Source of the DNA: a virus
DNA length: 37,537 nt
Reading direction: 5' to 3' (one strand)
IMG/VR virus record: IMGVR_UViG_3300025118_000057
Location: 1 to 37,537 of that record
The notes beneath the pieces were generated by a model, which had not been told where the DNA came from, made no database searches, and was given only the letters and a program-made list of their open reading frames with translations. Every line of letters starts with the position of its first letter. Position 1 is the stretch's first letter. Made by a program: the position numbers and the translations under genes. This document shows, piece by piece, positions 3,399 to 27,881 of this stretch.

Positions 3399-5654
3399 AT
3401 GAGAGGGATTATCGTTGGGCTAGGGCTCGCGCAGGGCTCCGAGGAAGGCGGCACTCCCCCTGTCCCCTATTCCAATACGAAGTCTTGTACGGTTGACGGA
3501 ATCGACGAATACTTCGATTGCGGCTCGCCAGCCGCGTTTGGTGGCGTCAATCAGCCGTTCTCGGCGTCAGTATGGTTCAGGAGCGAAACGAACACGGCGT
3601 GCGACTTGTTCGGCAAGTGGGGCGGCCTAGGTCCGCGCGACTGGGTGATCTACATGAGCGCGGGCCGAGTCTATGCGTACATGCAGACTTCAGTCGGGCT
3701 CTCGAACGCGGTTACAGCTCAGACGTATAACGACGGAGCGTGGCACCTCGCGACGATCACGTGGGACAGCTCTAATATTACGGTCGATGTTGACGGTGGC
3801 GCAGACCGAGTGAGTACGGCGGCAGCGACGCGGCTCTCCACGGCAGGAAGCCGCACATACCTTGGCGCTCGCGATAACGGTTCCGGCGGTTATGTCTCAA
3901 GCACGATGGTAGCAGGGAACCTGGAAGAGGCGTCGTTTTGGAGCAAAGGCTTGTCGGCAGCCGAGTGCATTGAGATCTACAACAGTGGGGTTCCCATGGA
4001 CTTGGCATCCCACTCTGCTGCTGCGAATCTTGTGAGTTGGTACCGGATGGGTGACGCAAGTGGCGACAGCGCCGAATCATCCGACCCGTCAGCTCGGATC
4101 AAAGATGTAAAGAGTGGGAACGACGCAACTCCCAAGAACACTGACATTGCGGACATCGTAACTGAGATACCTCCCACGTTTAACCGCCTGTCACTGCTCA
4201 CCGATGGCGTCGATGAGTACGCAGAGCTGGCAGCCGCCTCGGTCACCGGTTGCGAGTTCGACTTCAACCAGCCCTGGTCAGTCTCGGCTTGGGTGAAGAG
4301 CAGCTTTGGCGGGGCTAGCGCCGGCTACGTTGCGTCGAAGATCAGGGGAGCGCCGCACTATATGGGGTGGGCGGTTGGTTTCTACAACGGAAACCCGTTC
4401 TGCTTCTTCAGTCACTCGGTTCTTCACGGGGCATATGCGCAATCCTACGTTGACCAGTATATGTGTACCGGTGCGTGGAAGCACGTCGTGTGGACTTACG
4501 ACGGATCTGGCACGCTAGCGGGCGGCATGAAGATGTACGTGAACGGCACAGACACCTACCCGCAAGGGCAGGTCACAACGTCTTATATTGATACCATCGG
4601 AGGCAACAGCACTCTCGGCGGTGCGACCGCTCCGCTACGCCTTGGCGCGGCAAGCTACGGCGAATACTTCGATGGCTCGTTTGACGAGGTGAGCATCTGG
4701 AGCAAAGAGCTTTCCGCTGTTGAAGTAGACACAATGTACAACAGTGGCAAGCCCACTGACCTAACAGGTTCTGCTGATCTGGACGCTTACTACCGATGTG
4801 GTGAGGCCGCTGGAGATTCGGCAACAGGAACGATTCACGACCTGAGCGGCAACGCGAACAACCTGGCTGCCAACAACATGGAAGCGGCTGACATGCAGTC
4901 GGTGACGCCAAGGCCGTATTGGAACCTCCTGTCGATTGGCTTTGATGGCGTGGATGAGCGTCTGTACAGCTCACCAGCCAGCAATGCCCCGCTTTACGAC
5001 ACGGGCGACCCGTTCAGCGTGTCGTGCTGGTTCAAGACGTCAACTGGAACATATGGCGCGCTTGTAGCTAAAGAGTCAAGCCACCCAACATATGTCGGGT
5101 GGTGCTTATTTATGCACCCAGGCGGCATTATGCGGGTTGAGCTTTCCGCAGGAGCCGGGACGTATGTCGATGTCTGGACAACGGCATCAGGCTGGAACGA
5201 CGGCAACTGGCACCACGTTCTGATGACGTATTCGGGGGGCGGGGTAGCCGCTTCGGTTACGGTCTATGTTGATGGCGCTATTGAGGCAACCGCGACGCTG
5301 AGCGACACTCTTGGTGGTGGCTCGATTCTGACCTCGGACCCGCTTACCATCGGGTGTCGAGGTGACACTGCCCTGGGTGCCTGGTTACCGTACAACGGGC
5401 GCGTTGACGAAGTGAGTCTCTACAACACCACACTTACCGCAGCTAACGCCGTAGAACTCTACAACAACGGCAAGCCGAGGGACGCTCAAACTCTGACTAC
5501 GGAGAGCTACATTGACGCCTACTATCGCTGCGGAGACGACACGTTTGACGCGAAAGCTGGCGGTCAAGCTACAGTGTTTGATAAAACAGTTAACGATTAT
5601 GATCTTTGGCAAGCTAATATGGAGCAAGCCGACTTCGACTTGGATGTACCATGA
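3399..5654 (+). CDS. Large adhesin with three LamG-like (concanavalin A-like) domains, probable head spike
   Basis: The 751-residue protein has three internal repeats of a LamG-like beta-sandwich at about residues 28-200, 262-455 and 510-700. Each repeat opens with 'DGxDEY/R', has a 'FSxSxWFK' strand, a 'WHHVxxTY' strand, a 'YVDG/YVNG' turn and closes with 'GxxDEVSxWSKELSAxEVxxxYNSGKP'. After each comes a short 'YYRCG...D' linker block. Such domains usually bind sugars. It lies in the head gene block straight after a spike-base gene, rather than with tail fibres, so a capsid spike is more likely than a tail fibre. A two-LamG relative lies at 26358-27881. No enzyme motif is visible. Confidence 0.8.
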   Translation: MRGIIVGLGLAQGSEEGGTPPVPYSNTKSCTVDGIDEYFDCGSPAAFGGVNQPFSASVWFRSETNTACDLFGKWGGLGPRDWVIYMSAGRVYAYMQTSVGLSNAVTAQTYNDGAWHLATITWDSSNITVDVDGGADRVSTAAATRLSTAGSRTYLGARDNGSGGYVSSTMVAGNLEEASFWSKGLSAAECIEIYNSGVPMDLASHSAAANLVSWYRMGDASGDSAESSDPSARIKDVKSGNDATPKNTDIADIVTEIPPTFNRLSLLTDGVDEYAELAAASVTGCEFDFNQPWSVSAWVKSSFGGASAGYVASKIRGAPHYMGWAVGFYNGNPFCFFSHSVLHGAYAQSYVDQYMCTGAWKHVVWTYDGSGTLAGGMKMYVNGTDTYPQGQVTTSYIDTIGGNSTLGGATAPLRLGAASYGEYFDGSFDEVSIWSKELSAVEVDTMYNSGKPTDLTGSADLDAYYRCGEAAGDSATGTIHDLSGNANNLAANNMEAADMQSVTPRPYWNLLSIGFDGVDERLYSSPASNAPLYDTGDPFSVSCWFKTSTGTYGALVAKESSHPTYVGWCLFMHPGGIMRVELSAGAGTYVDVWTTASGWNDGNWHHVLMTYSGGGVAASVTVYVDGAIEATATLSDTLGGGSILTSDPLTIGCRGDTALGAWLPYNGRVDEVSLYNTTLTAANAVELYNNGKPRDAQTLTTESYIDAYYRCGDDTFDAKAGGQATVFDKTVNDYDLWQANMEQADFDLDVP

Positions 5655-8020: not shown

Positions 8021-9609
8021 TGGCACTTACTGGAATCGACCCTAACGATCCAATCCCGGCAACCAGACGAGAGCTGATTTTTGGCGCTGGCATTTCAAGC
8101 CAAGGTCCGAATCGCGAGGTTGTACTTTACGGAAACCGTGATCAGATTAACCCCCCATCAAACCCTGAAACGCTCGATACGCTGGGCACTTACATCGCTG
8201 ATGACTCAGACGCTAAAGCTCGCTTTGGTCCTCGATCTGAGCTTTATCAGATGTACAAGAAGTACACTGCGGTTGACAGCGGAGCTACCATCTATGGCGT
8301 AGCTGTTACAGAAAGCGTTGGCGCTCAAGCGGTGTCAACGTTGACTCTAGCAACTAATGCAAACGCATCGTCAACGCTAAAGATTACAATTGTGGGAGTT
8401 GACATTCTCGTGGGTGTTGCCGCTGGCGATACACCCACTGTAGTTGCAACAGCTGCCGCGTCAGCAATCAATGCGGCTGAGGGTGCAACGCTTCCGGTGC
8501 GTGCGGGAGCAGTTGCTGGCGTTATAACCATTACCGCAGCCAACCGGGGGTTGCGTGGCAACTTCATTATTGGGCGGCTTGCAGCCCCGAATGAGCAGGG
8601 TTTGCGCGCTTCGTTCACGAAGCCCTGCCTAATGACCGTCACCAAGGCGATTACCGCAGCGGGCGCTACGGCTGATGACGGGGCAGCGGCGATTGCCTCG
8701 GTGGCAAACAGTGAGATCTACTATCAAGTGTCTCCTTGGCAACAAAGCGCCATGTTGAACAGCGTTGGCAACACCGTAGTAATCTCTGATACTGACACCC
8801 AAAACGGGGAGCTTGGGGCGATGATTCGCACGCAAGCACTCCCAATCAACGGCAAAGAGCAGTGCATGATCACGGCATTTGTCGATGACCAAGCGGCAGC
8901 CACAACGATTGCAACTACGCTAAATAGCGTCCGAGCCTTTATGTTCCGAGCGGAGCGTAACGACTGGACACCGGCAATGCTGGCTGCTCAAAACGCTGCT
9001 GTCGTGCGCAGCCAGCAAGTGAGCCAGCCGGCTGCCAACTTCGCGGGTTATCAGAGTTCTGACAGGGCTGTGTATCAGGTTCTCGCGCCGTTTAGCGTCA
9101 ACGACCGGCCTACCACGGTCGAAATTCGCGCCGACCTCAACAACGGCGTATCGCCAATTGCCTTCCGACCGGATGGCAAGGCGTACTTGGTGAGGTTCAT
9201 TACAACCAAGTGCCGAAACGACGCAAACGACCCGGACTATCGGGCTCGCCCAGGGCATATCACAAGCGTTGTGGACTTCTCATGGAACCTCGTGAAGCAA
9301 CGCTGGGAGAGCTTAAAGCAGCCCTTCGTTGCGGATGACGCAGCAGAGGGTCAGGCCCCACAGGCACGAACGACGACCCCGAATCTCGTCAAGGGAATGA
9401 TGGGGCAGGTTATCGATGACCTGACTAGTTCCACGCCACTTGGACAGTACCAAGGCCCGATTTTGGCTCCCGATAAAGTCGCGGAGATGAAGAAGAGCAT
9501 TGTTGCTACGAAGATGACGGCTGGCATCGCGGTCAGCGTTGACTTTTACTCGGTGGAGCACCTTTACAAGGGCGAGTTCACCATTCAGGAGACGGGAGCA
9601 GCATACTAA
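8020..9609 (+). CDS. Contractile tail sheath protein (Mu gpL-like)
   Basis: The 529-residue product has the length and layout of Mu-type sheaths. The start (PATRRELIFGAGISSQGPNR) is the strand that links sheath rings, residues ~105-200 hold the inserted domain with 'LKITIVGVDILVGVAAGDTPTVVATAAASAINA' (seen in pieces), and the end has 'YQGPILAPDKVAEMKKSIVATK' and 'VDFYSVEHLYKGEFTIQETGAAY', the C-terminal linker arm. It forms the contracting outer tube that drives the tail tube through the envelope. The tube gene follows with a one-base overlap, the standard order. Confidence 0.9.
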   Translation: MALTGIDPNDPIPATRRELIFGAGISSQGPNREVVLYGNRDQINPPSNPETLDTLGTYIADDSDAKARFGPRSELYQMYKKYTAVDSGATIYGVAVTESVGAQAVSTLTLATNANASSTLKITIVGVDILVGVAAGDTPTVVATAAASAINAAEGATLPVRAGAVAGVITITAANRGLRGNFIIGRLAAPNEQGLRASFTKPCLMTVTKAITAAGATADDGAAAIASVANSEIYYQVSPWQQSAMLNSVGNTVVISDTDTQNGELGAMIRTQALPINGKEQCMITAFVDDQAAATTIATTLNSVRAFMFRAERNDWTPAMLAAQNAAVVRSQQVSQPAANFAGYQSSDRAVYQVLAPFSVNDRPTTVEIRADLNNGVSPIAFRPDGKAYLVRFITTKCRNDANDPDYRARPGHITSVVDFSWNLVKQRWESLKQPFVADDAAEGQAPQARTTTPNLVKGMMGQVIDDLTSSTPLGQYQGPILAPDKVAEMKKSIVATKMTAGIAVSVDFYSVEHLYKGEFTIQETGAAY

Positions 9610-9992
9610 TGGCACTCTATTCTCAGATGTACTTGTACATCGACGACATTTTGCTTTGCGAAAATACAACTATCGAAACGTCGCTTGAGTCAGACATTCA
9701 AGATGTTATGACCATCCAGGGCGGGAAGGACGGATGGAAGGGCATTACCCCCAGTCCCGTCATGAGAACAGTTACAGCAAACAACGTCATACCAAGAACT
9801 GGTACTGAAATTGACTTTGAAAGCCTCATGTTAAACAACACTGAGATTCAAGTGACAATTCAGGAAAATGGCGGCTCTGGAAAAAAGATGGTTTCCAAGG
9901 GGTATATTACCAATGTCCCCCGGTCTGCCGGAGTCGGTCAGACGGTGACCATTTCGTTCACGTTTCGAGGGACACCAGGGATCTTTGAGTAG
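9609..9992 (+). CDS. Tail tube protein, copy 1
   Basis: This 127-residue protein follows the sheath and has the size of Mu gpM-type tube proteins, which stack as hexamers inside the sheath. Key stretches are MYLYIDDILLCENTTIETSL, MRTVTANNVIP, 'IQVTIQENGGSGKKMVSKGYIT' and 'RSAGVGQTVTISFTFRG'. The next gene is a clear paralogue with the same motif order. Having two tube-like genes in a row is unusual, so one may be the tube and the other a tube cap or initiator. Confidence 0.8.
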   Translation: MALYSQMYLYIDDILLCENTTIETSLESDIQDVMTIQGGKDGWKGITPSPVMRTVTANNVIPRTGTEIDFESLMLNNTEIQVTIQENGGSGKKMVSKGYITNVPRSAGVGQTVTISFTFRGTPGIFE

Positions 9993-9995
9993 AAA

Positions 9996-10373
9996 GTGGC
10001 CATTTACAACAACATCTACGTTGTTCTAAATGGTTCCGTCTTGGCAGAGGCGGTCACCGTTGAGACATCTCTCGAACGTGCGACTGCGGAAGTGTTTTCC
10101 GTCGTCAACGGGTTCGAGGGTGTTACAACGGGACCGCTGGTTCGCCGTGTCAGCGTGAGCAACGTGATACCGCCTCTTGGGTCGATGTATCCTGAGTTTG
10201 AAAATATGATGGCCACCAACGAGAAGGTGGAACTGATGCTTCAAGAGGGCAGCTCTGGGCGCACGATGGTTGTGAGGGGTTTTATTACGGCGGTGAGTCG
10301 CAGCGCTGGAGTAGGGCAAAACTCAGAGCTGTCTTTTGAGTTTGTTGGGGGGGCAGCTACCGCCTTTGCATAA
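9996..10373 (+). CDS. Tail tube protein paralogue, copy 2
   Basis: A GTG start four bases after the previous stop gives a 125-residue protein aligned with the preceding gene along its whole length: 'VETSLE', 'RRVSVSNVIP', 'MLQEGSSGRTMVVRGFITAVSRSAGVGQ' and 'LSFEF' match 'IETSLE', 'MRTVTANNVIP', 'IQENGGSGKKMVSKGYITNVPRSAGVGQ' and 'ISFTF'. The two are clearly a tandem duplication that has diverged, including different surface charges. Which one builds the tube body cannot be told from the sequence. Confidence 0.78.
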   Translation: MAIYNNIYVVLNGSVLAEAVTVETSLERATAEVFSVVNGFEGVTTGPLVRRVSVSNVIPPLGSMYPEFENMMATNEKVELMLQEGSSGRTMVVRGFITAVSRSAGVGQNSELSFEFVGGAATAFA

Positions 10374-14439: not shown

Positions 14440-15378
14440 ATGGCACTCAAGCATTCTATCATTGGGCAGTTACCAAAGATGACATGGCGTGGCCTTGAGT
14501 CGCCACCCTATGATTCAGCGTCAATCTCCGGCAGCTTCTCTCTAGCGGAGCATCGATATCCATATATAAACGGGGCGTCTCACGACAATGTGGGTGCCGA
14601 TCCCGTTCCCATGAAATTTAGGCTTCACTTTCTATCCAACTTGGGGCCTGACTATTTCCCCAAGTTGTTTACGGAATGGTTTAATGCCGTTGCCGTAGAC
14701 GGCACGAAGGGTAAGTTGCAGCATCCAGTCTATGGGTTGACATGGGCTATGGTTAAAGACTGGAGCGTTGACGTCAGTGCCGACAGGGACTCAGGGGCGA
14801 TAATGGAAGTCTCTTTTATAGAGACATTGCCAGATCCGTCAGTTGGGAGCGATATGTTTATCGAACTAGACATAGCTGGCATGAAAGCTGCGGCAGAAGC
14901 TATAGATATAGATTACTCAAAACTGAAACTTCCGTGGCCCGATGGGGTAGGGGAAACAAGCCTCTTGGATATGGTCAAAAAGATTGATGGTATGGCTACG
15001 CAGGCACGGGCTACTGTTGAGGGCTACCTCAACCAGTCTTTGGGTACTATCGAAGCGGTTATGAATAGCGCAGAGTCATTTGGCGACAACGCAAAGTGGG
15101 CGCTGGGCGGCAATCTGATTACTCTATGGAATGGAGTGAAAGACCTGGGCGACAAGGCGGGTGTTAAAACCAGGGTCACAGCCAAGTACGCTGTGAAGAG
15201 CGATACGAACCTTGATCGTGTTTCAGAGGCCACTGGCAATACGGTGGGAGAGCTGATCGGTCTTAACGAGTCGCTGCTGGACAGCCCCAAGATCAAGAAG
15301 GGGAGTGTGGTGACTTATTATACTGACAAAGAGTTCAACTCTTTCTTGGACGACGCAAGCGATTCGTTAGGGGTCTAA
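14440..15378 (+). CDS. Baseplate hub protein, Mu N-like (DNA circulation family) with C-terminal LysM
   Basis: The 312-residue protein has two parts. Residues 10-125 (LPKMTWRGLESPPYDSASIS, 'SLAEHRYPYINGA', 'YGLTWAMVKDWSV', 'EVSFIET') match the N-terminal domain of Mu gpN, once called a DNA circularisation protein and now seen as part of the baseplate hub. Residues ~248-294 (KYAVKSDTNLDRVSEATGNT, then 'LIGLN' and 'IKKGSVVTYY') form a LysM-like module that could bind peptidoglycan or make contact in the hub. The middle is helical. The gene order tape measure, N, P is that of Mu. Confidence 0.82.
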   Translation: MALKHSIIGQLPKMTWRGLESPPYDSASISGSFSLAEHRYPYINGASHDNVGADPVPMKFRLHFLSNLGPDYFPKLFTEWFNAVAVDGTKGKLQHPVYGLTWAMVKDWSVDVSADRDSGAIMEVSFIETLPDPSVGSDMFIELDIAGMKAAAEAIDIDYSKLKLPWPDGVGETSLLDMVKKIDGMATQARATVEGYLNQSLGTIEAVMNSAESFGDNAKWALGGNLITLWNGVKDLGDKAGVKTRVTAKYAVKSDTNLDRVSEATGNTVGELIGLNESLLDSPKIKKGSVVTYYTDKEFNSFLDDASDSLGV

Positions 15379-15379
15379 G

Positions 15380-16759
15380 ATGGGTGTTGATTCCCAGGGA
15401 CTATCTCTACGGATTTACTTCCCCACCTCTGGCAAAAAGCAAGCGGTTGAGGTCTGGACTGACTTTTCTCTTTCAGAAGGTTTTTTGGATCCACTCGGCT
15501 CCTTCTCCTTCACACTGTATCCAACTCCAGAGAACTTCGAGCTGATGAGAGAACGTTTTGCCAAAGGGCAGAGCGCGCGACTAGAGGTCGGGGGCCAGCC
15601 GCAAATGACAGGGGTCGTAACAACCCAGACGATCTCGATGAGTCGTCGCGGCACCTCGATAAGGGTTGATATGAAGAGTATGCTTGCAGCCCCTTATGAA
15701 GCAAGCGTGAGCCCAACTTACACCCTTAGTTCCAAGTCGGATATTCCCATATCGCAGCTCATCATGGTCTTGATGGCTCCGTATTTTTATTCGAGTGAGA
15801 GGACAGATCTTCTGTCTTTGACGTCCAACGTAGGAACTGACCTGCTTGCCCGCAGCGGGCTTCCAGCTGGCAAATACATGATGCCAGCGCCAGTCCCAAT
15901 TACAACACTGAAAGCTCGTCAGCTAAAAGCAAAGCGGGGGGAAACTGTATACTCTTTTATCTCTCGCATTATATCTCGAATGGGGTTCATTCTAAAAACA
16001 GACGCTTACGGCGGCTTACTTTTAGATGTTCCGCTTTACGGCTTGCCGCCAATGTACACCCTTGCGGACGCTGGTGGGAGCGGAGGTGACGATGCAACAG
16101 ATCTCATGTTGGACGGCATCACTGTCATCGACTCAAATGACAGACAGTTTAGCGAGGTTGTTGTTAGCGGACAGGCACTGATGAGGAAGCCGTCTGGGAA
16201 GGGGAAGGCCGTTAATCCTCTTAAAGGTGGCAAAACGCCGCCAAAGCCTGGTCCGGTTAGAGCTAACAAGCCGATTGGCGGCGTGAGGGTGGCTGGGGCT
16301 GTTGATGTTTACAGCGATGACTACGCCAACACGAATAATTGGAAGGCCATTCCTGCCGGCAAAAAAAGGATGGTGTTCCCCTATAAGTCGGTTGCATATA
16401 AGAGCCTTGAGCGCGGTAGGCACCACTATTCGAGCAACCAGTGGCAACCATATAAGCCGAAGTATGTTGAGGACAAGATGTCCCGCGATAGTGCGAGGTG
16501 TGAGGTTTTTGCAGAACTTCTTTTGGGACTAAAGAGCCCAGGCGGCTTTAAGATAACGTGTTCCGTTGCTGGTTTTCAGGCAAAAACTGGAGCCCTATGG
16601 ACGCCAAATACGGTGGTGAGAGTGAAGATCGATAAGCTGAACATTGACGAAGATATGTGGATTTTTGCACGCGAATTTACGGCAAGTCGCGGGAGGGGTC
16701 AGATCACCAAGCTCACCCTATTGCCGATGGGTGCTTTGGTTCTTGGGGGCTTAGGGTAG
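15380..16759 (+). CDS. Baseplate hub protein, Mu P/gp44-like
   Basis: The 459-residue protein begins 'LSLRIYFPTSGKKQAVEVWTDFSLSEGF' and continues 'PLGSFSFTL', 'RLEVGGQPQMTGVVTTQTISMSRRGTSIRVDMKSM', 'RGETVYSFISRIISRMGFILKTD', all strongly recalling the gp44/gpP family with its gp27-like barrels that form the trimeric hub below the tail tube. A Lys/Gly/Pro-rich loop at ~275-300 interrupts the second half. It follows the N-like gene by one base and its stop overlaps the propeller gene start by one base. Confidence 0.8.
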   Translation: MGVDSQGLSLRIYFPTSGKKQAVEVWTDFSLSEGFLDPLGSFSFTLYPTPENFELMRERFAKGQSARLEVGGQPQMTGVVTTQTISMSRRGTSIRVDMKSMLAAPYEASVSPTYTLSSKSDIPISQLIMVLMAPYFYSSERTDLLSLTSNVGTDLLARSGLPAGKYMMPAPVPITTLKARQLKAKRGETVYSFISRIISRMGFILKTDAYGGLLLDVPLYGLPPMYTLADAGGSGGDDATDLMLDGITVIDSNDRQFSEVVVSGQALMRKPSGKGKAVNPLKGGKTPPKPGPVRANKPIGGVRVAGAVDVYSDDYANTNNWKAIPAGKKRMVFPYKSVAYKSLERGRHHYSSNQWQPYKPKYVEDKMSRDSARCEVFAELLLGLKSPGGFKITCSVAGFQAKTGALWTPNTVVRVKIDKLNIDEDMWIFAREFTASRGRGQITKLTLLPMGALVLGGLG

Positions 16760-18132
16760 TGATTATCTCGACATATTCTCAGTTCAGAACTAACTTTTCA
16801 AGCGGCGCTTACCCTATCGAGCCTGACGGGCTGCGCCAATGGCCCGCTGCTGAGGTTCGTAGGGCCGGTTCAGGCTTTGGTGATACAGGTAGCACCCTCA
16901 TCAACATCCCAAAGCCGCCACGCAACTATGCGCCGCTAAGCATTAGCTGCAACAACTTCCTCCCAGACGCCGTTCCGTTCACATCAGAGTACCAGTGGTT
17001 TAGCAGCAGCCGCACCCAAGACCCTGGCTCATTTGCGCTCATGCCCAACACGGCTACTCTGAGATTTGTGTCTATTGTAGGGGGAGAGATCCTTGACACG
17101 GTGGATGGCGGCACAACGTGGACGAAGAAAACTAACCCAACAGCATCAGCAGCCGGGTTTCAGAGCGTGTCATCGCCCTCAACGACTCATCGGTGGGCAG
17201 TGGGGGGCGATGGGATAATAATCGCTAGCCAAACCAGCGGGCAAACGTGGCAGACCCAAACCAGCGGGACAGCAAACGACCTCAACAGCGTTGATTTTAT
17301 TGACAATTCCGAGGGGTGGGCAGCTGGCGCTGGGAATGTCGTGTTGTACACAAGTAACGGGGGTACTACTTGGGCATCGGTTGCAACGGGAGCCGTTTGG
17401 GATATCTCAGCGATTAGTTTTCTCAGTGGCGGCCGTGGCATCGTGGCGGGGGATGCGGGCAATACTCTCTGGACGTCAAATGGCGGTGTAACCTGGAACA
17501 GCGTTCCCCTCGGAATCGTAACAGCCGTTAATGATATAGACCTTTTGCCAACAGCTGTTGGCTGGGCCGTCTCGGAACAGGGATATATATTCAAGACATC
17601 GAATGCTGGCTCAACGTATTCTCAACAGTTTAGCGGGGGTACGCCGAACTCGCTGAGGGGCGTTTGCGCGGTGAGCAGCAGTACCGCTTACGTTGTCGGT
17701 GAGAACGGCTACATTATAAAAACCAGCGATGGCGGTACAACATGGTCCGTTCAGACGAGCGGGGTAACGGCTACGCTCATCGACGTTAAGTTTGTCAGTG
17801 CGTTGATGGGGTGGGTATGCGGATACGATTACGAGACAAACTCAGCTGTCATTCTTTACACTTCTGATGGCGGGGCGACTTGGGAAGTTCAGTCAGGTCG
17901 CTCTAATGTTGCGCCCCTTGGGATTGACTCTCCTCGTGTGAACATGGGAGCGCTGAGTTTTAGTGGCTCCATTACGCTTGCTATAAACTCAATCAACCCC
18001 CCGTCTACTCCCCTGACTCCAGAGGCGGTCGCAACAACATTCAAGAACTGCCACCTTTATGTTCAGCGTCTTTCTGACAGTGCGATTCAGTGGGTTGACT
18101 TGCTGCGTGCAATGGTGGCTAATACGGGGTAG
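16759..18132 (+). CDS. Seven-repeat Asp-box beta-propeller protein (Ycf48/BNR-like) in the baseplate block
   Basis: I take the GTG at 16759, overlapping the hub stop (TAGTG), giving 457 residues; earlier starts would run deep into the hub gene. Residues ~113-375 carry seven Asp-box-type turns about 43 residues apart: DTVDGGTTW, ASQTSGQTW, YTSNGGTTW, WTSNGGVTW, KTSNAGSTY, KTSDGGTTW and YTSDGGATW, each preceded by a 'GWAxGxxGxI' strand. This is the Ycf48/HCF136 and sialidase-type seven-bladed propeller layout. The first ~110 and last ~75 residues are different and may anchor it in the baseplate. No sialidase active-site set (Arg triad, Tyr) is apparent, so binding rather than catalysis is likely. 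Confidence 0.8.
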   Translation: MIISTYSQFRTNFSSGAYPIEPDGLRQWPAAEVRRAGSGFGDTGSTLINIPKPPRNYAPLSISCNNFLPDAVPFTSEYQWFSSSRTQDPGSFALMPNTATLRFVSIVGGEILDTVDGGTTWTKKTNPTASAAGFQSVSSPSTTHRWAVGGDGIIIASQTSGQTWQTQTSGTANDLNSVDFIDNSEGWAAGAGNVVLYTSNGGTTWASVATGAVWDISAISFLSGGRGIVAGDAGNTLWTSNGGVTWNSVPLGIVTAVNDIDLLPTAVGWAVSEQGYIFKTSNAGSTYSQQFSGGTPNSLRGVCAVSSSTAYVVGENGYIIKTSDGGTTWSVQTSGVTATLIDVKFVSALMGWVCGYDYETNSAVILYTSDGGATWEVQSGRSNVAPLGIDSPRVNMGALSFSGSITLAINSINPPSTPLTPEAVATTFKNCHLYVQRLSDSAIQWVDLLRAMVANTG

Positions 18133-18134
18133 AT

Positions 18135-18848
18135 ATGGCAAGAGATAGTGAATGGTCTTATTCCGATCTTTTGGTTTCATCTGTTGAAGATGGTCGGATA
18201 ACAGTAACGCTTGGCGACAATCGGTACGACGAGGGTGAAACCGAAGGGGTAATAGCCGATTGCCAGAGTGTTGGTGGTCCGGACGGCTTTTACTCAGTCC
18301 CTGCTGTTGCCGATGAGAACGGATCTCCACAGGCGTTCTCCCACACCATTGGTAACGAAAGTTTTGTTTTTGGAACCTGGGATAACAGGTCAATTGCCAA
18401 TTGCGGGAGTTTGAAGCCGGGTGATCGGGCTATTGTTACCACTGGGCCAACCAGGTTGCTTGTTAAGGACTCTTCAGATTCCATTAACATGGTGACCAAG
18501 GCGGCCGACTTGCCTGAAGAGAAAGATGCGACTACTGGCGCGGTCTTGACAGACATGGGCATCTCTCTTGTTGGGGACAACAACGGAGAGTCAAATATCA
18601 GCCTTACCCTAGGAACATCGATTATCCAAATAACTAAAGATAAGATATTGTTGTCAGCCGGGGGCACTCAGCTCGTCATCGACAAGAAGGGGGTAGCCAT
18701 TCACGGAGACAACTTTATGTGCAACACGGGCGGTGGAAACCTCGGCGTTTTGGGGCCTGGAGCAGCGCCTCCAGTTGGGGCGATGTCGGTGCTTATGGGA
18801 CCAATGGGTCAAGCGGGTGTGGCATCGATTAAGTGGACCGTATCATGA
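18135..18848 (+). CDS. Baseplate spike protein, Mu gp45-like
   Basis: The 237-residue protein starts with a small OB-like barrel region ('SSVEDGRITVTLGDNRYDEGETEGVIADCQS') and ends with a beta-helix-like stretch ('TLGTSIIQITKDKILLSAGGTQLVIDKKGVAIHGD') followed by a Gly-rich tip. This barrel plus beta-helix order is that of gp45/gpV membrane-piercing spikes. It lies between the hub and the gp46-like wedge, as in Mu, with the propeller gene inserted before it. The tip lacks an obvious HxH iron motif in what I can see. Confidence 0.75.
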   Translation: MARDSEWSYSDLLVSSVEDGRITVTLGDNRYDEGETEGVIADCQSVGGPDGFYSVPAVADENGSPQAFSHTIGNESFVFGTWDNRSIANCGSLKPGDRAIVTTGPTRLLVKDSSDSINMVTKAADLPEEKDATTGAVLTDMGISLVGDNNGESNISLTLGTSIIQITKDKILLSAGGTQLVIDKKGVAIHGDNFMCNTGGGNLGVLGPGAAPPVGAMSVLMGPMGQAGVASIKWTVS

Positions 18849-19174
18849 GCGCGTGCTCAATACCTTCGTTTGAGCTTCCGTCGCTCCCTTCTATTCCGAT
18901 CCCTCCGCTTCCAGATTTACCGGAGTTGCCGTTGCCCCCTTTCCCCGATCTCGGCATACCCATAAAGATTCCATCGTTTTCCTTGCCGTCGCTCCCTTCT
19001 ATTCCGATCCCTCCGCTTCCAGATTTGCCGGAGTTGCCTCTTCCGCCTTTTCCAGATCTTGGGATTCCCATAAAGATTCCATCGTTTTCTCTTCCACCAT
19101 TTCCCTCTATTCCGATCCCTCCGCTTCCAGATTTACCGGAGTTGCCATCGATCCCCCTTTGCCCCCTGGACTAA
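18845..19174 (+). CDS. Proline-rich 36-residue repeat protein next to the spike
   Basis: I place the start at the ATG 18845 (ATGA overlap with the spike stop), giving 109 residues; an earlier start 12 bases upstream is possible. Almost the whole protein is a repeat of PSLPSIPIPPLPDLPELP plus LPPFPDLGIPIKIPSFSL: two full 36-residue units and one partial. Pro occurs about every third residue with Leu/Ile/Asp/Glu between, which suggests an extended polyproline-type rod. Its coupling to the spike gene suggests it acts at the spike tip or baseplate. I know no family with proven function that matches. Confidence 0.7.
   Translation: MSACSIPSFELPSLPSIPIPPLPDLPELPLPPFPDLGIPIKIPSFSLPSLPSIPIPPLPDLPELPLPPFPDLGIPIKIPSFSLPPFPSIPIPPLPDLPELPSIPLCPLD
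18878..19146 (+). repeat. 108-bp in-gene tandem repeat (2.5 copies)
   Basis: Units start at 18878, 18986 and 19094, exactly 108 bases apart. The block CTATTCCGATCCCTCCGCTT is identical in all three copies, while third-codon positions differ elsewhere (for example ttaccggag versus ttgccggag), so the protein sequence is more conserved than the DNA. This shows selection on the repeat peptide rather than a fresh duplication. Confidence 0.9.
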
Positions 19175-21951: not shown

Positions 21952-22610
21952 TGGCTATTGGGCTTGGAGCAACTAACCCGATTCCATTTTATATGGGCGG
22001 GGGAGACTCGTTTGTTGAGGATGAGCAGCAGGTCATCTTGAGCACGATGCAGCCGGCTCTCGATCCAGACTCATCTACGGGGAACTACGCGGAGGCTTAT
22101 GGTGAGGCCATTGCCATTGCCATGATCTGGGCCGTAAACAAAAGGCTTGCCAACCAGGCGGTTCCTGAGCGGATGATGGAAAACCTTACCGTCTGGGAGG
22201 AGGCTTGCGGAATGAGGCCCACGGTGGATGAGTTTGACATCACCCGAAGGGCTAGGCTGAGCGCAAAGTTTAGGGCGACATCCAACAATGCACTTGGTGA
22301 CATCTCGGCGGCTGCCAGCAAGTTGCTAGGAAGTAACTTTGTAGCGCTTCACAAAACCGATCCAACTGACTGGATAACCTATTGGCCGGGAATTAACCCA
22401 GGTCCACCAGGGCTTGAATGGTCAAGCAACCGAGCGAAGGTATCGGTTCAAATGGATGAAAGCAACCTTGACAATAAGGAGCTTGCCTCAAAACAACAAT
22501 CTCTGGTGAACCAACTAGACGGGATGATTCCGTCGTGGATGAGTTTTCAGGTCGGTGTTGGCGTGTCCTTTTTGGCAGGTGTTGGTATTGTAGGAAAGAC
22601 AATCGTATGA
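21951..22610 (+). CDS. Baseplate protein, Mu gp48-like (DUF2313)
   Basis: The 219-residue protein has the DUF2313/YmfQ-type start: an acidic loop, then 'AEAYGEAIAIAMIWAVNKRLANQAVPERMMENLTVWEEACG', followed by 'DEFDITRRARLSAKFRATSNNALGDISAAASKLLG'. In Mu this gene follows gp47 and its product links baseplate to tail fibres. The C-terminal ~40 residues are hydrophobic (VGVGVSFLAGVGIVGKTIV), which is unusual for the family and may be a later addition. It overlaps the next gene by four bases. Confidence 0.75.
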   Translation: MAIGLGATNPIPFYMGGGDSFVEDEQQVILSTMQPALDPDSSTGNYAEAYGEAIAIAMIWAVNKRLANQAVPERMMENLTVWEEACGMRPTVDEFDITRRARLSAKFRATSNNALGDISAAASKLLGSNFVALHKTDPTDWITYWPGINPGPPGLEWSSNRAKVSVQMDESNLDNKELASKQQSLVNQLDGMIPSWMSFQVGVGVSFLAGVGIVGKTIV

Positions 22611-23224
22611 CGTTTCCAATTCAAAAACCGGGTGGCTGGACGGACAACCTTGATACCATTACGGGTCAGCAGATCACGAACATTGATGTCAACTTGCACC
22701 GGGCTTTAGATGGTACCTCCGGTGGCTCTTACACTCCAGCTGCGCCCATAGTTGTTGGGGGGACAGGGGGACTCGACATTCAAAATGGTGTCAGCACAAC
22801 GATGACTGGCCCCATTACGCTTCAGGGCGCAGGGGCGCACATTCTGTATAGAATCGACCGCACATCGATTATCCCCACGGCGGCCCCCTGGTCAGGAACA
22901 ATAGACACATCCAGTGATATCTACCTCGTTGGAGCGCCGTGCGTAAACACGGTATCGGTGGGCATTAACATCACAAACGGTGCGATGGAGATCCCCACGG
23001 AGGGGCAAAGGCTTGTTATCCGAAAGTATCCAGACATTGTTAACGACACTACGGCCCTAACGCTTCATCAGGACACGTGGGCTGGAACCCAAATTCTATC
23101 TCTCCCGCCACTCAACACGTTGGCTGCTCCAGCGGGCAACGGGTATGTAGATGCTGAGCTTGTGTTCAATGGAACATCTAGCTTGTGGGAAGTTGTCCGC
23201 TGTCACTCTCAGTGTACGCCATGA
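22607..23224 (+). CDS. Fibre-like protein, paralogue A
   Basis: I choose the ATG at 22607 (ATGA overlap with the gp48-like stop), giving 205 residues; a start 72 bases earlier would only read through the previous gene. It opens 'MTFPIQKPGGWTDNLDTITGQQI', has 'LDGTSGGSYTPAAPIVVGGTGGLDIQNG' and ends 'AELVFNGTSSLWEVV'. The next gene has the same architecture from the first residue on. Such proteins form trimeric fibre tips or collars. No chaperone or enzyme motif is seen. Confidence 0.68.
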   Translation: MTFPIQKPGGWTDNLDTITGQQITNIDVNLHRALDGTSGGSYTPAAPIVVGGTGGLDIQNGVSTTMTGPITLQGAGAHILYRIDRTSIIPTAAPWSGTIDTSSDIYLVGAPCVNTVSVGINITNGAMEIPTEGQRLVIRKYPDIVNDTTALTLHQDTWAGTQILSLPPLNTLAAPAGNGYVDAELVFNGTSSLWEVVRCHSQCTP

Positions 23225-23841
23225 CGTTTCCACTTGTAAAACCAGCTGGTTGGACGGATGGCGTTGATCCGATCACAGCTTCGGAGATGTCCACGCTGGA
23301 CGCAAACCTTGCCTCTGCGATAGATGGCCACTCGGGCGGATCATACGCGCCATCTGCCGCTCTCCAGATAGGCGGCTCTGGCCTGGAGATAAGCAATTGC
23401 GCAGCCCATCAGGTTCGTGGAAATTACTCACTCAACCATGCCAAGGCGGCCATCAAGTACCGGGTTGACCGGACAACCGTGAACCCGGCAACGGCGACAG
23501 AATACCGAATCGACACATCTAATGATATTTACATCACATCGGGGCCTGCAACAGTTGCCCTGGTGAAGGTTGCGCTCAACGTTTCAGCGGATGGCTATGT
23601 TGCCCCAGCTGACGGGGCACGTATTATCTTTCGGAAGCACGTAAACATCCCTGGCCCACAGACAGACCTGATGACGATTGATATTTACAACGATGACACC
23701 GCCGCATCATCTTTGCTTGCCAGCTTTGTTGGCCTTTCGCTTATTGGGGCGGCAAACCCTTACATTACGGCAACGTTTTTGTTTGATGCCATTGCTGGAG
23801 AATGGACTGTAGAGAGCGCTGAACAGCGCGTACAGATGTGA
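23221..23841 (+). CDS. Fibre-like protein, paralogue B
   Basis: The ATG at 23221 overlaps the stop of paralogue A (ATGA), giving 206 residues. It matches A at the start ('MTFPLVKPAGWTDGVDPITASEM' against 'MTFPIQKPGGWTDNLDTITGQQI'), in the middle ('AIDGHSGGSYAPSAALQIGGSG', 'IKYRVDRTTV') and at the end ('FDAIAGEWTVE'). The pair is a tandem duplication. Divergence is spread over the length, so they probably now have separate roles, perhaps making a hetero-complex. Confidence 0.68.
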   Translation: MTFPLVKPAGWTDGVDPITASEMSTLDANLASAIDGHSGGSYAPSAALQIGGSGLEISNCAAHQVRGNYSLNHAKAAIKYRVDRTTVNPATATEYRIDTSNDIYITSGPATVALVKVALNVSADGYVAPADGARIIFRKHVNIPGPQTDLMTIDIYNDDTAASSLLASFVGLSLIGAANPYITATFLFDAIAGEWTVESAEQRVQM

Positions 23842-25125: not shown

Positions 25126-26361
25126 ATGGCATCACCAGCATTCAAGATCAACGGGAGCGCAACGCCTGCCTCAGTGGCTTCGGGGGGAGCTGTCACAGCA
25201 GTCCTAGACAGCATCGACGGGGTGGTAACCGTGGCGTGGTCGATCATCCGCACTGACGATACGTCAGCCACGACAGATTATACGTTGGTGCAAAGCGGGT
25301 CTGTCGGCCAGCAGTGCGCAACGACGGCACTAACAGACGGGAAGTCGGCAGCCCTTCAGTGCATTGTCAACGGAGGGATAGACCCACAAACGGGGCTCCC
25401 CTCAAGCACGATGACGGCCGTCGCGAAGTTCTACGTGCCCACAGCGACCGGCTACATGGTCCTCAACGCGGGGGAGTTCACAGACGGCAACAACGAATCT
25501 AGCTCCACCTTCGGAGCCGTCCTTCCGGTAAATTCATCCATCCGAGAGGCAGGGCTCGCCGGCCCCCCATCGGGAGCTGCTGGCGGTCAACTATCTGGTA
25601 CCTACCCAAACCCAAGTGTTGCTGGTCTAACAGAAACGTCTGGCCCAACAGCTCTTGCGTTGGGAGCAGTCGCTGACACTGAGTTCTTGGTCCGCTCCGG
25701 CGCAACTATCGTTGGATCTGCCGGACCTGCGCCAAGTGGAGCTGCTGGCGGTCAGCTCTCGGGAACATATCCCAACCCAGCAGTCGCTGGTTTAACAGAA
25801 ACGTCTGGCCCAACAGCTCTTGCGTTGGGAGCAGTCGCTGACACTGAGTTTCTGGTTCGCTCCGGCGCAACCATCGTGGGGTCTGCTGGACCTGCTCCAA
25901 GCGGCGCTGCCGGTGGCCAGCTCTCGGGGACGTACCCCAACCCAGCCGTGGCAGGGTTCACGGAGACATCCGGTCCAACCGCTTTGACAGTAGGAGCGAT
26001 TGCTGACGGTCAAACCGTCATGCGCAGCGGAGCCACCTTCATCGGCTCGTCGTTGATTACGATCACCCCTGTCGTCACTACGTTCACAACGAATTGCACG
26101 CTCGGGAGTGTCTTCTATATGACCATGACTGGTGGCGCGGATACCCTCGCCAACCCGACAGGGCTACAGAACGGCTCCACTTATGTTTGGGTTATTGAGC
26201 AGAACGGCGCAGGCGTTGGAACGCTGGCCTACGGCGCACTCTTCAAGTGGCCAGGCGGCACCGCGCACACCGTGACGGCTGTGGTCAGTGCCATCGATAT
26301 TGTTTCAGCCGTGTGCCGTGGCGGAAACCTTTACGCAGTAGGGAATGCGAACTTCTCATGA
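25126..26361 (+). CDS. Tail fibre protein with three 55-residue repeats
   Basis: The 411-residue protein has a beta-sandwich start (residues ~5-120, Ig-like with 'VVTVAWSIIRTDD'), then three tandem units that each contain GAAGGQLSGTYPNP and 'TETSGPTALALGAVADTEFLVRSGATIVG', and a beta end ('TTFTTNCTLGSVFYMTMTGGADTLANPTG'). 'G-G-x-L-x-G-T-Y-P-N-P' is a well known repeat of phage tail fibres and gives a collagen-like shaft. It lies at the fibre end of the structural operon. It probably extends from the baseplate and positions the LamG protein that follows. Confidence 0.8.
   Translation: MASPAFKINGSATPASVASGGAVTAVLDSIDGVVTVAWSIIRTDDTSATTDYTLVQSGSVGQQCATTALTDGKSAALQCIVNGGIDPQTGLPSSTMTAVAKFYVPTATGYMVLNAGEFTDGNNESSSTFGAVLPVNSSIREAGLAGPPSGAAGGQLSGTYPNPSVAGLTETSGPTALALGAVADTEFLVRSGATIVGSAGPAPSGAAGGQLSGTYPNPAVAGLTETSGPTALALGAVADTEFLVRSGATIVGSAGPAPSGAAGGQLSGTYPNPAVAGFTETSGPTALTVGAIADGQTVMRSGATFIGSSLITITPVVTTFTTNCTLGSVFYMTMTGGADTLANPTGLQNGSTYVWVIEQNGAGVGTLAYGALFKWPGGTAHTVTAVVSAIDIVSAVCRGGNLYAVGNANFS
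25567..26052 (+). repeat. 165-bp in-gene tandem repeat (three copies)
   Basis: Units begin at 25567, 25732 and 25897, each 165 bases (55 residues). Units one and two are nearly identical in DNA over long runs (the stretch from 'acagaaacgtctggcccaac' through 'cgctgacactgagtt' is shared), whereas unit three has diverged. This points to a recent duplication or gene conversion of the first two units, a common way for fibre length to change. Confidence 0.88.
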
Positions 26362-27881
26362 GCCCCCTACCTCACCCCGTTGGGCTTCTCGCCTCGTCCG
26401 CTGCCGCCCCCGCGTGGGCTAACGACTACTCTGGCTGGTTCGACGCGGGAGACGATTATCTCGAAGGCAGCACTACGCTTCTCAACTTCGATTCCACTGA
26501 CTCTTGGTCTGTAAACCTCTGGTGCCGCACGGACACTATATCGCAGAATGCGTACCTGGTATCGAAGATCGACGCGGCTGGAGTTAACGCTGGTTGGGGC
26601 GTGGGAATATATCAAGATCGGCCGATCATGGTCTTCATCCACGATCTGGGAGCCGGCTGGCAAGTCGAGCGCGGGGCAGCGCCGTCCACGGGCTACTTGT
26701 CGAACGATTGCTGGCACATGCTCACCTACACTTACGACGGCTCGGAAGACGTGACTGGAATGAAGATGTACGTCGATGGCGTAGAGGTGGGCTCCTACAC
26801 TAACTATGCGAACAACATCCAGAGCCCATCAACGAGCACAGGCGCGCTACTGGTCGGCAGTGAAGTCATAGCCAAGGGCTCGTCGTTCTACGGTGGATAC
26901 CTGGATGAGATTAGCGTCTACAATACTGAGCTGAGCGCTGGTAACGTTACAACCTTGTTCAACCTTCAGGATTATGCGCAGGGCAAAGCATACGACATCA
27001 GCGCTTTTGCCGGCATTCAAAGCTATTGGCAGATGGGCGATCACGCGAGCGACAGCTTCGCGGCGGGGGGCACAATCCACGACACGGCAGGTAGCAACAA
27101 TTTGACTTGCCGGAACACCGTCGTGGGCAACAAAAACACGTCGAACAGTTCCGAGTGGTCCAAACTCGTCAGTCTTGAGCTTGACGGCGTTGACGATTAC
27201 GCGAGCGCGCAAGCCCCCATGGTGATTGATCACAACACCGCATTCTCGATCTCGGCGTGGTTTAAGACCGGCGCTCCAAGCTACGCATGTATTCTCAGCA
27301 AGCAAGTCAATTGGGGAACGTATCGCGGCTGGAACCTATTTCTGCACAGCACGGGTGAGCTTCGACTTGAGATGACCAGCAGCGGCGCAAACTATCTCGA
27401 CGTTTATACCCTCGGCAATCAATACAACGATAGCGACTGGCATCACGTGCTTTGCACGTGTGATGGGACAGGGACAGCCGCCGGCATCACAATGTACGTT
27501 GACGGCGCGTCTGTCGCGCTCACTACGCTGAGCAACAACCTATCTGGCAACACGCTGCTTAATTCCGAAAACGTGCAGCTAGGGGCTCGCGGCAGCTTCC
27601 TTGCTGACATGTACTTCCCCGGCAACATCGACGAAGTGAGCGTCTACTCAGCTGCACTCACGGCCGGCGACGTCACGGCGATCTACAACGGCGGAACTCC
27701 TGTTGACATCTCGGCGCTCGCAGCAAGCTGGGCGCACATTCATACATGGTGGCGTCTTGGCGAGGGTCAGAACGACACCGGCAGAACGCCTGGGAAGATC
27801 GCAGCGGGTGGGACTCCGGCAAACTATCTACAGTGTTCAAATATTGCGAACGACCAGTTCGTCAATGATACTCCACCATGA
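26358..27881 (+). CDS. Adhesin with two LamG-like domains, fibre end
   Basis: I choose the ATG at 26358 (ATGA overlap with the fibre stop), 507 residues. Two LamG-like domains occupy about residues 25-215 and 270-470, each with 'WSVNLWCRTDT'/'FSISAWFKTG' strands, 'WHMLTYTYDG'/'WHHVLCTCDG', 'MYVDG' and a closing 'DEISVYNTELSA'/'DEVSVYSAALTA'. They resemble the three domains in the gene at 3399-5654, so the phage carries five such lectin-like domains on two proteins. Its place after the fibre suggests it is a receptor-binding tip. No catalytic motif seen. Confidence 0.8.
   Translation: MSPLPHPVGLLASSAAAPAWANDYSGWFDAGDDYLEGSTTLLNFDSTDSWSVNLWCRTDTISQNAYLVSKIDAAGVNAGWGVGIYQDRPIMVFIHDLGAGWQVERGAAPSTGYLSNDCWHMLTYTYDGSEDVTGMKMYVDGVEVGSYTNYANNIQSPSTSTGALLVGSEVIAKGSSFYGGYLDEISVYNTELSAGNVTTLFNLQDYAQGKAYDISAFAGIQSYWQMGDHASDSFAAGGTIHDTAGSNNLTCRNTVVGNKNTSNSSEWSKLVSLELDGVDDYASAQAPMVIDHNTAFSISAWFKTGAPSYACILSKQVNWGTYRGWNLFLHSTGELRLEMTSSGANYLDVYTLGNQYNDSDWHHVLCTCDGTGTAAGITMYVDGASVALTTLSNNLSGNTLLNSENVQLGARGSFLADMYFPGNIDEVSVYSAALTAGDVTAIYNGGTPVDISALAASWAHIHTWWRLGEGQNDTGRTPGKIAAGGTPANYLQCSNIANDQFVNDTPP

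What the first reader, a model, noticed from the sequence alone, without database searches (positions are those of the whole stretch)
16759..18132. Seven-bladed Asp-box propeller (Ycf48/BNR-like) inserted between baseplate hub and spike
Seven Asp-box turns about 43 residues apart match a seven-bladed propeller such as the photosystem II factor Ycf48/HCF136 or sialidases. The gene is fused by overlap to the hub gene and lies right before the spike, in the core of the baseplate. Propellers are not standard at this site in Mu-like phages. It could be a receptor-binding or baseplate-locking part captured from bacterial DNA, or a glycan-binding domain.
Basis: partly seen in the sequence, partly recalled or inferred. 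Interest (0 to 1): 0.75.

Follow-up and report, generated by a model that had tools for sequence, protein, structure and literature searches.

The report
Propeller domain inserted in baseplate protein
In a small group of uncultured contractile-tailed phages, a whole seven-bladed propeller domain has been inserted into one loop of a small, previously undescribed baseplate protein encoded between the hub and the spike, most likely giving the tail tip an extra cell-surface-binding module.

Summary
The propeller is real. ORF 16759-18132 has seven Asp-boxes 41-46 residues apart, a PSII_BNR match at E=4.5e-23, and a seven-bladed predicted fold closest to Ycf48. The reading "a propeller gene inserted between hub and spike" is not right. 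Relatives at the same slot carry a short 152-161 aa gene. Its two halves match the two flanks of the window protein: a profile built from the short forms alone finds the window protein at E=2.6e-22, in two pieces that skip the propeller. So the slot holds an undescribed baseplate protein ("cap"; no Pfam, PHROG or PDB match), and the propeller (about 285 aa) is a domain inserted between two segments that look like the strands of a hairpin. Propeller-bearing phages form one clade on a baseplate-J tree (100/100), nested among propeller-less ones, which fits one gain. Other members have a different insert in another loop. In two members the cap gene sits next to the fibre genes instead. The propeller diverges faster than its scaffold and lacks sialidase residues. 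Best mechanism: the cap core anchors in the baseplate and displays the propeller as a non-enzymatic adhesion module, like CBMs in "evolved Dits". The architecture is shown; the adhesion function is inferred.

The parts
16759..18132 (+). Cap-propeller gene, 457 aa, GTG start overlapping the hub stop by 1 base
   Evidence: start codon supported by ATG at the same codon in L002/L003
16759..17031 (+). N-terminal half of the ancestral baseplate 'cap' core (TYSQFR...WP...YQWFSSSRT)
   Evidence: matches positions 1-86 of a profile built only from the short homologues, iE 1.9e-10; hhalign 3.5e-9
17068..17928 (+). Inserted seven-bladed Asp-box (Ycf48/PSII_BNR-type) beta-propeller; Asp-boxes start at 17098, 17227, 17350, 17473, 17596, 17722, 17860
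   Evidence: absent from short homologues
17947..18129 (+). C-terminal half of the cap core (SFSGSITL...FKNCHLYVQRLSDSAIQWVDLL)
   Evidence: matches the C-terminal part of the short-form profile, iE 4.8e-10; hhalign 1.2e-10
15380..16759 (+). Baseplate hub, gpP/gp44-like
   Evidence: Pfam NMB1110-like_C 2.2e-12, GpP_4th 9.1e-8; phrog_177 baseplate hub 6.2e-27
18135..18848 (+). Putative central spike
   Evidence: position and conservation only (74% identical in L002); no family match
18845..19174 (+). Proline-rich triple-repeat protein directly after the spike, conserved in most relatives read
14440..15378 (+). Hub-associated (circularisation/LysM-type) tail protein
   Evidence: phrog_184 baseplate hub 1.3e-11

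Best explanation
The gene encodes a two-domain baseplate protein. A core of about 155 residues (N-terminal ~90 plus C-terminal ~60) belongs to a conserved single-copy baseplate family and anchors the protein in the tail tip. A seven-bladed propeller of about 285 residues is inserted between two core segments that look like the strands of a hairpin. Shown by sequence: the core family, its conserved slot, the clean insertion, and a pattern that fits a single gain. Inferred: the insertion site faces outwards, the propeller is displayed around the hub/spike of the contractile tail, and it binds a host surface glycan or protein non-enzymatically as an accessory adhesion module. That is the way carbohydrate-binding modules inserted in 'evolved Dits' work.
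For: A profile of short homologues alone (L014, L015, L016, L022, L023, L031) finds the window protein at E 2.6e-22 in two collinear pieces that skip the propeller; L002 and L033 behave the same. The alignment shows a clean insertion between '..YDWYLSQRTD..QY' and 'SFSGS..L'. All members except L029 and L034 lie between hub and spike. Propeller-bearing records form one clade, 100/100 on the J tree and 99/98 on the core tree. Whole-record searches find the cap family in 11 of 12 records, at one place each, and the propeller only in the three propeller-bearing records. L032 carries a different insert in the first loop, so the core tolerates inserts at more than one site. In L029 and L034 the cap gene sits next to the fibre genes. 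The propeller diverges faster than its scaffold: window against L033 31% versus 53/57%, against L002 52% versus 66/77%. Between L002 and L003, 21 of 22 amino-acid changes fall in the propeller (Fisher p=4e-4). Precedents: phi11 Gp45 and phiKZ gp131C baseplate propellers (PMC4901313); evolved Dits (PMC9692632); Vp4 Gp119, a CBM-bearing baseplate wedge that binds cells (PMC11406892).
Against: No binding data and no virion data. The propeller is under purifying selection (dN/dS 0.13), not hypervariable. The phage has other candidate adhesins (LamG proteins). The fold and position of the core in the baseplate are unknown: the core has pLDDT below 50 and no PDB or Pfam match. Outward orientation is therefore an inference.
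Confidence: 0.62

Rival explanations
1. The propeller is a structural reinforcement: a rigid disc that fills or locks the space between hub, spike and wedge and stabilises the baseplate, with no ligand on the cell.
For: It lies in the hub-spike operon and at one place per record. In A-1(L) small gp16 monomers fill the gap between hub and wedge (PMC10966104). Propeller selection is purifying, dN/dS 0.13 against 0.07-0.12 in neighbouring tail genes.
Against: Relatives dispense with it. A different insert in another loop of L032, and relocation next to fibre genes in L029 and L034, fit an exposed, variable module better. The propeller diverges faster than the scaffold it would be packed with.
Confidence: 0.25
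2. It is a glycan-degrading enzyme (sialidase- or GH74-like) that clears capsule or exopolysaccharide at the tail tip.
For: Asp-box propellers include sialidases and xyloglucanases. The four-member profile weakly matches GH74 xyloglucanases (1.9e-5), and one Foldseek hit is a putative BNR glycosyl hydrolase (3b7f).
Against: Across four propeller-bearing proteins no propeller Arg is invariant, the only invariant acids are in Asp-boxes, and no RIP motif is present. There is no match to a sialidase family.
Confidence: 0.06
3. A whole bacterial propeller gene was captured and placed between hub and spike.
For: The propeller domain resembles bacterial YCF48-related proteins, and MW202476 has hub followed directly by spike.
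Against: Both flanks of the window gene are homologous to one short gene in the same slot in relatives. Only the domain was gained.
Confidence: 0.03
4. An assembly factor like Ycf48 that helps build the tail but is not in the virion.
For: The fold is closest to Ycf48, an assembly factor.
Against: The core is a conserved single-copy baseplate-operon gene, and Ycf48 similarity is at the domain level only: 90 bits against an equivalog cut-off of 326.
Confidence: 0.04

Closest known systems
Ycf48/HCF136 (Pfam PF14870 PSII_BNR)
   Same: Seven-bladed Asp-box propeller; Ycf48 chains have the lowest Foldseek E-values and are the best PDB sequence hits
   Different: Here it is a domain inserted in a phage baseplate protein; far below the Ycf48 equivalog cut-off; no photosystem context
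'Evolved Dit' distal tail proteins with CBM insertions (lactococcal and Lactobacillus siphophages)
   Same: A conserved tail-tip protein with a carbohydrate-binding module inserted in a loop of its core (PMC9692632)
   Different: A different core family in a contractile-tailed phage; the insert is a propeller, not a CBM; binding not shown
phiKZ gp131 C-terminal seven-bladed propeller and phi11 Gp45 five-bladed propeller
   Same: Propellers at the baseplate; phi11 Gp45 is a receptor-binding protein (PMC4901313)
   Different: Those sit in fibre/RBP proteins at the baseplate periphery, not in a small hub-spike protein
Vibrio phage VP2/VP5 'outer capsid' protein and cyanophage 'baseplate wedge initiator' proteins with Asp-box stretches
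   Same: Asp-box propeller matches in tail-region phage proteins
   Different: Different scaffold proteins and positions; marginal sequence similarity (E 2e-4 to about 1)
Vp4 Gp119 baseplate wedge with CBM folds
   Same: A myophage baseplate component enlarged by carbohydrate-binding folds; binds host cells (PMC11406892)
   Different: A wedge protein, with CBM folds rather than a propeller

Membership tests
PSII_BNR / Ycf48-type Asp-box propeller (domain level) | Match above the Pfam gathering score | tested here: met
   82.4 bits against 27; L002 80.0; L033 37.6
PSII_BNR / Ycf48-type Asp-box propeller (domain level) | Seven blades, each with an Asp-box | tested here: met
   Seven motifs, spacing 41-46; seven-bladed model, TM 0.65-0.71 to Ycf48; some boxes are degenerate in L002 and L033
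Ycf48 photosystem II assembly factor (orthologue) | Passes the Ycf48 equivalog cut-off | tested here: not met
   PRK13684 90.2 bits against 326
Ycf48 photosystem II assembly factor (orthologue) | Stand-alone lumenal protein or lipoprotein in a phototroph | tested here: not met
   The propeller is internal to a phage baseplate protein
Sialidase (GH33/34 type) | Conserved arginine triad and catalytic acid in the propeller | tested here: not met
   No invariant Arg in the propeller among four members; invariant acids only in Asp-boxes
Sialidase (GH33/34 type) | Sialidase family profile match | tested here: not met
   No sialidase family for the window protein, L002 or L033
Evolved Dit | Core is a Dit/distal tail protein | tested here: not met
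   No Pfam Dit match for the core or the whole protein
Evolved Dit | Binding domain inserted in a loop of the core | tested here: inconclusive
   Insertion of a domain in the core is shown by alignment and split profile match; that the insert binds anything is not tested
New hub-spike 'cap' baseplate family | Shared N core (YxxFRxxF ... YLSQRT) and C core (YxxRxSDxxIQ) | tested here: met
New hub-spike 'cap' baseplate family | Is a virion structural protein | not testable with these tools
   Only genomic context; needs mass spectrometry or cryo-EM

The most novel reading that the evidence does not exclude
The cap family is a new modular socket of contractile tails. A small hub-spike protein accepts unrelated domains at at least two loop sites (propeller in the window clade; other inserts in L032 and L034) and can move between the hub-spike slot and the fibre cluster, so that phages change tail-tip specificity by domain insertion without touching hub, spike or wedges.
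Probability: 0.35. Interest if true: 0.65.

Novelty: new variant of a known kind. Interest (0 to 1): 0.52.

Why it matters
It gives a natural experiment with both states preserved: the same baseplate protein with and without a propeller, at the same place, with clean junctions and a supported tree. That makes the role of baseplate propellers, which is open for phiKZ gp131C (PMC4901313), testable by removing one domain. It also names a baseplate protein family with no match in Pfam, PHROGs or the PDB here, and extends the 'evolved Dit' principle of tail-tip proteins gaining binding modules to a contractile-tail hub-spike protein.

Tried and rejected
Whole-gene capture was rejected after short homologues were found in the same slot. 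Sialidase or GH activity was rejected on missing conserved residues. Searches of the flanks alone in INPHARED gave nothing, and both scans of bacterial/archaeal genome contigs gave nothing, so the host is unknown. tblastn of the short forms in INPHARED gave only sub-threshold hits, to a Dolichospermum phage and to a Methanoculleus virus tape measure, treated as chance. I first read L029 and L034 as lacking the cap gene; a profile search found it downstream next to the fibre genes, and only MW202476 lacks it in its whole record. The full-length AlphaFold model was weak (pLDDT 53; core below 50), so the fold of the core is not claimed. Pfam hits of the core to LtfC and others (E about 0.1) were not used.

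Full report
OBSERVATION. The ORF at 16759-18132 (457 aa) starts with GTG, overlapping the stop of the gpP-like hub gene by one base, and ends three bases before the spike gene. Relatives start with ATG at the same codon. It holds seven Asp-box turns with spacings of 41-46 residues, against a mean of 0.34 and a maximum of 3 in 2000 shuffles. It matches PSII_BNR at E=4.5e-23 and Ycf48 crystal structures at 1e-16. The propeller part alone folds with pLDDT 78 and pTM 0.81. Its Foldseek hits with the lowest E-values are Ycf48 chains (TM 0.65-0.71), and the highest TM-score in the listed top 50 is the designed seven-bladed propeller 7bid (0.76/0.81).

CONTEXT. The window is an IMG/VR viral contig with a contractile-tail operon: sheath (phrog_165), two tail-tube-like genes, tape measure, hub-associated protein, hub, cap-propeller, spike, proline-rich protein, gp25-like, baseplate J, gp48-like, then candidate fibres (the tube genes match weakly, E 6e-4 and 3.5e-3; the gp25-like and fibre labels rest on position). 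Two contigs, L002 and L003, are collinear across the tail module, and the propeller protein is 57% identical in both.

WHAT IS REALLY THERE. Searching with the hub and with baseplate J reached more distant relatives. In L014-L020, L022, L023 and L031 the gene between hub and spike is only 152-161 aa. Its beginning and end align with the beginning and end of the window protein. Profile-profile comparison gave 3.5e-9 for the N flank and 1.2e-10 for the C flank, each a single-pair E-value. A profile built from the short forms alone, searched against 1235 open frames, found the window protein at E=2.6e-22 as two pieces: profile 1-86 on residues just before the propeller and 116-157 just after it. 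L033 scored 3.3e-25 and L002 2.6e-21, with the same split. The multiple alignment shows the junctions: a short form (L023) reads '..YDIYLSQRTDDTASQYFTLTEVSGKSGTWTL..', while the window reads '..YQWFSSSRTQDPGSFALMP [propeller] ALSFSGSITL..'. The pattern suggests the tip of a beta-hairpin; that secondary structure is inferred, since the core was not modelled confidently.

HISTORY. On an IQ-TREE phylogeny of baseplate J, a gene independent of the trait, the propeller-bearing records (window, L002, L033) are one clade (100/100). Their neighbour is L032, whose cap lacks a propeller, and other propeller-less forms lie outside. A tree of the cap core agrees (99/98). One gain in the ancestor of the clade is the simplest reading; the root is not fixed by a reliable outgroup. 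Whole-record searches find the cap family at one place in 11 of 12 records, and the propeller family only in L002, L003 and L033. MW202476, a distant phage with the same tail order, has hub followed directly by spike and no cap.

THE CORE TOLERATES OTHER CHANGES. L032 has a different insert of about 80 residues in the first loop of the core, after 'WQSFRAAF'. L034 also has an insert near the start. In L029 and L034 the cap gene is not between hub and spike but follows the gp48-like gene (directly in L029, further downstream in L034) and precedes the fibre genes. These points fit a protein with exposed loops that belongs functionally with the adsorption parts, but they do not prove it.

RATES. 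The propeller diverges faster than its own scaffold: window against L033 31% (propeller), 53% (N core), 57% (C core); window against L002 52%, 66% and 77%. Between the close pair L002 and L003, 21 of 22 amino-acid differences lie in the propeller (Fisher p=4e-4), with dN/dS 0.13 there, 0 in the N core and 0.04 in the C core; neighbouring tail genes have 0.07-0.12. All is purifying selection; there is no sign of positive selection.

FUNCTION. An enzyme is unlikely: across four members no Arg is invariant in the propeller and the only invariant acids are in Asp-boxes. Known phage propellers at tail tips are receptor-binding (phi11 Gp45) or suspected to be (phiKZ gp131C) (PMC4901313). The closest functional analogue for the architecture is the 'evolved Dit', a tail-tip protein with a carbohydrate-binding module inserted in a loop (PMC9692632). 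In myophages a CBM-bearing baseplate wedge, Vp4 Gp119, binds cells (PMC11406892). I therefore favour an accessory adhesion module on a baseplate core (0.62), with a structural role as the main rival (0.25).

LIMITS. Effective sequence numbers are small (two to four lineages per form). The core fold, the host and the presence in virions are unknown. The propeller's donor cannot be traced; bacterial YCF48-related proteins are the nearest outside hits, at about 25% identity.

Noticed in passing
window 18845-19174 (TRF array 18875-19146): Proline-rich protein directly after the spike, where a PAAR tip gene would be expected: a 36-residue unit repeated about 2.5-3 times. Homologues in L002, L014, L022, L023, L032 and L033 also have a Cys within about 6 residues of the start and end in CPLD. 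Candidate spike tip of unknown kind; no convincing family match.
   Followed up: partly
window 9609-9992 and 9996-10373: Two tandem tail-tube-like paralogues after the sheath, both kept in L002 and L003 (cross-identity 35-44%, orthologues 65-71%); weak phrog_1407 major tail protein matches.
   Followed up: partly
window 3399-5654 and 26247-27881: Two LamG/concanavalin-like lectin proteins; the first (751 aa, three domain matches) is encoded between the major head protein and the tail genes, so it may decorate head or neck.
   Followed up: no
window 22607-23224 and 23221-23841: Tandem paralogues of about 205 aa after the gp48-like gene, also paired in L002, L015 and L016; they look like short fibre proteins with a shared N-terminal motif; the first has no family match.
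   Followed up: no
window 25573-25946: A 165-bp unit repeated 2.3 times inside ORF 25126-26361, a candidate repeat fibre.
   Followed up: no
L009 (Synechococcus phage DSL-LC03), and OQ504982/OQ504983: Annotated 'baseplate wedge initiator' proteins of cyanophages show Asp-box stretches; DSL-LC03 has a weak PSII_BNR match just under cut-off, so baseplate propellers may be more widespread.
   Followed up: partly
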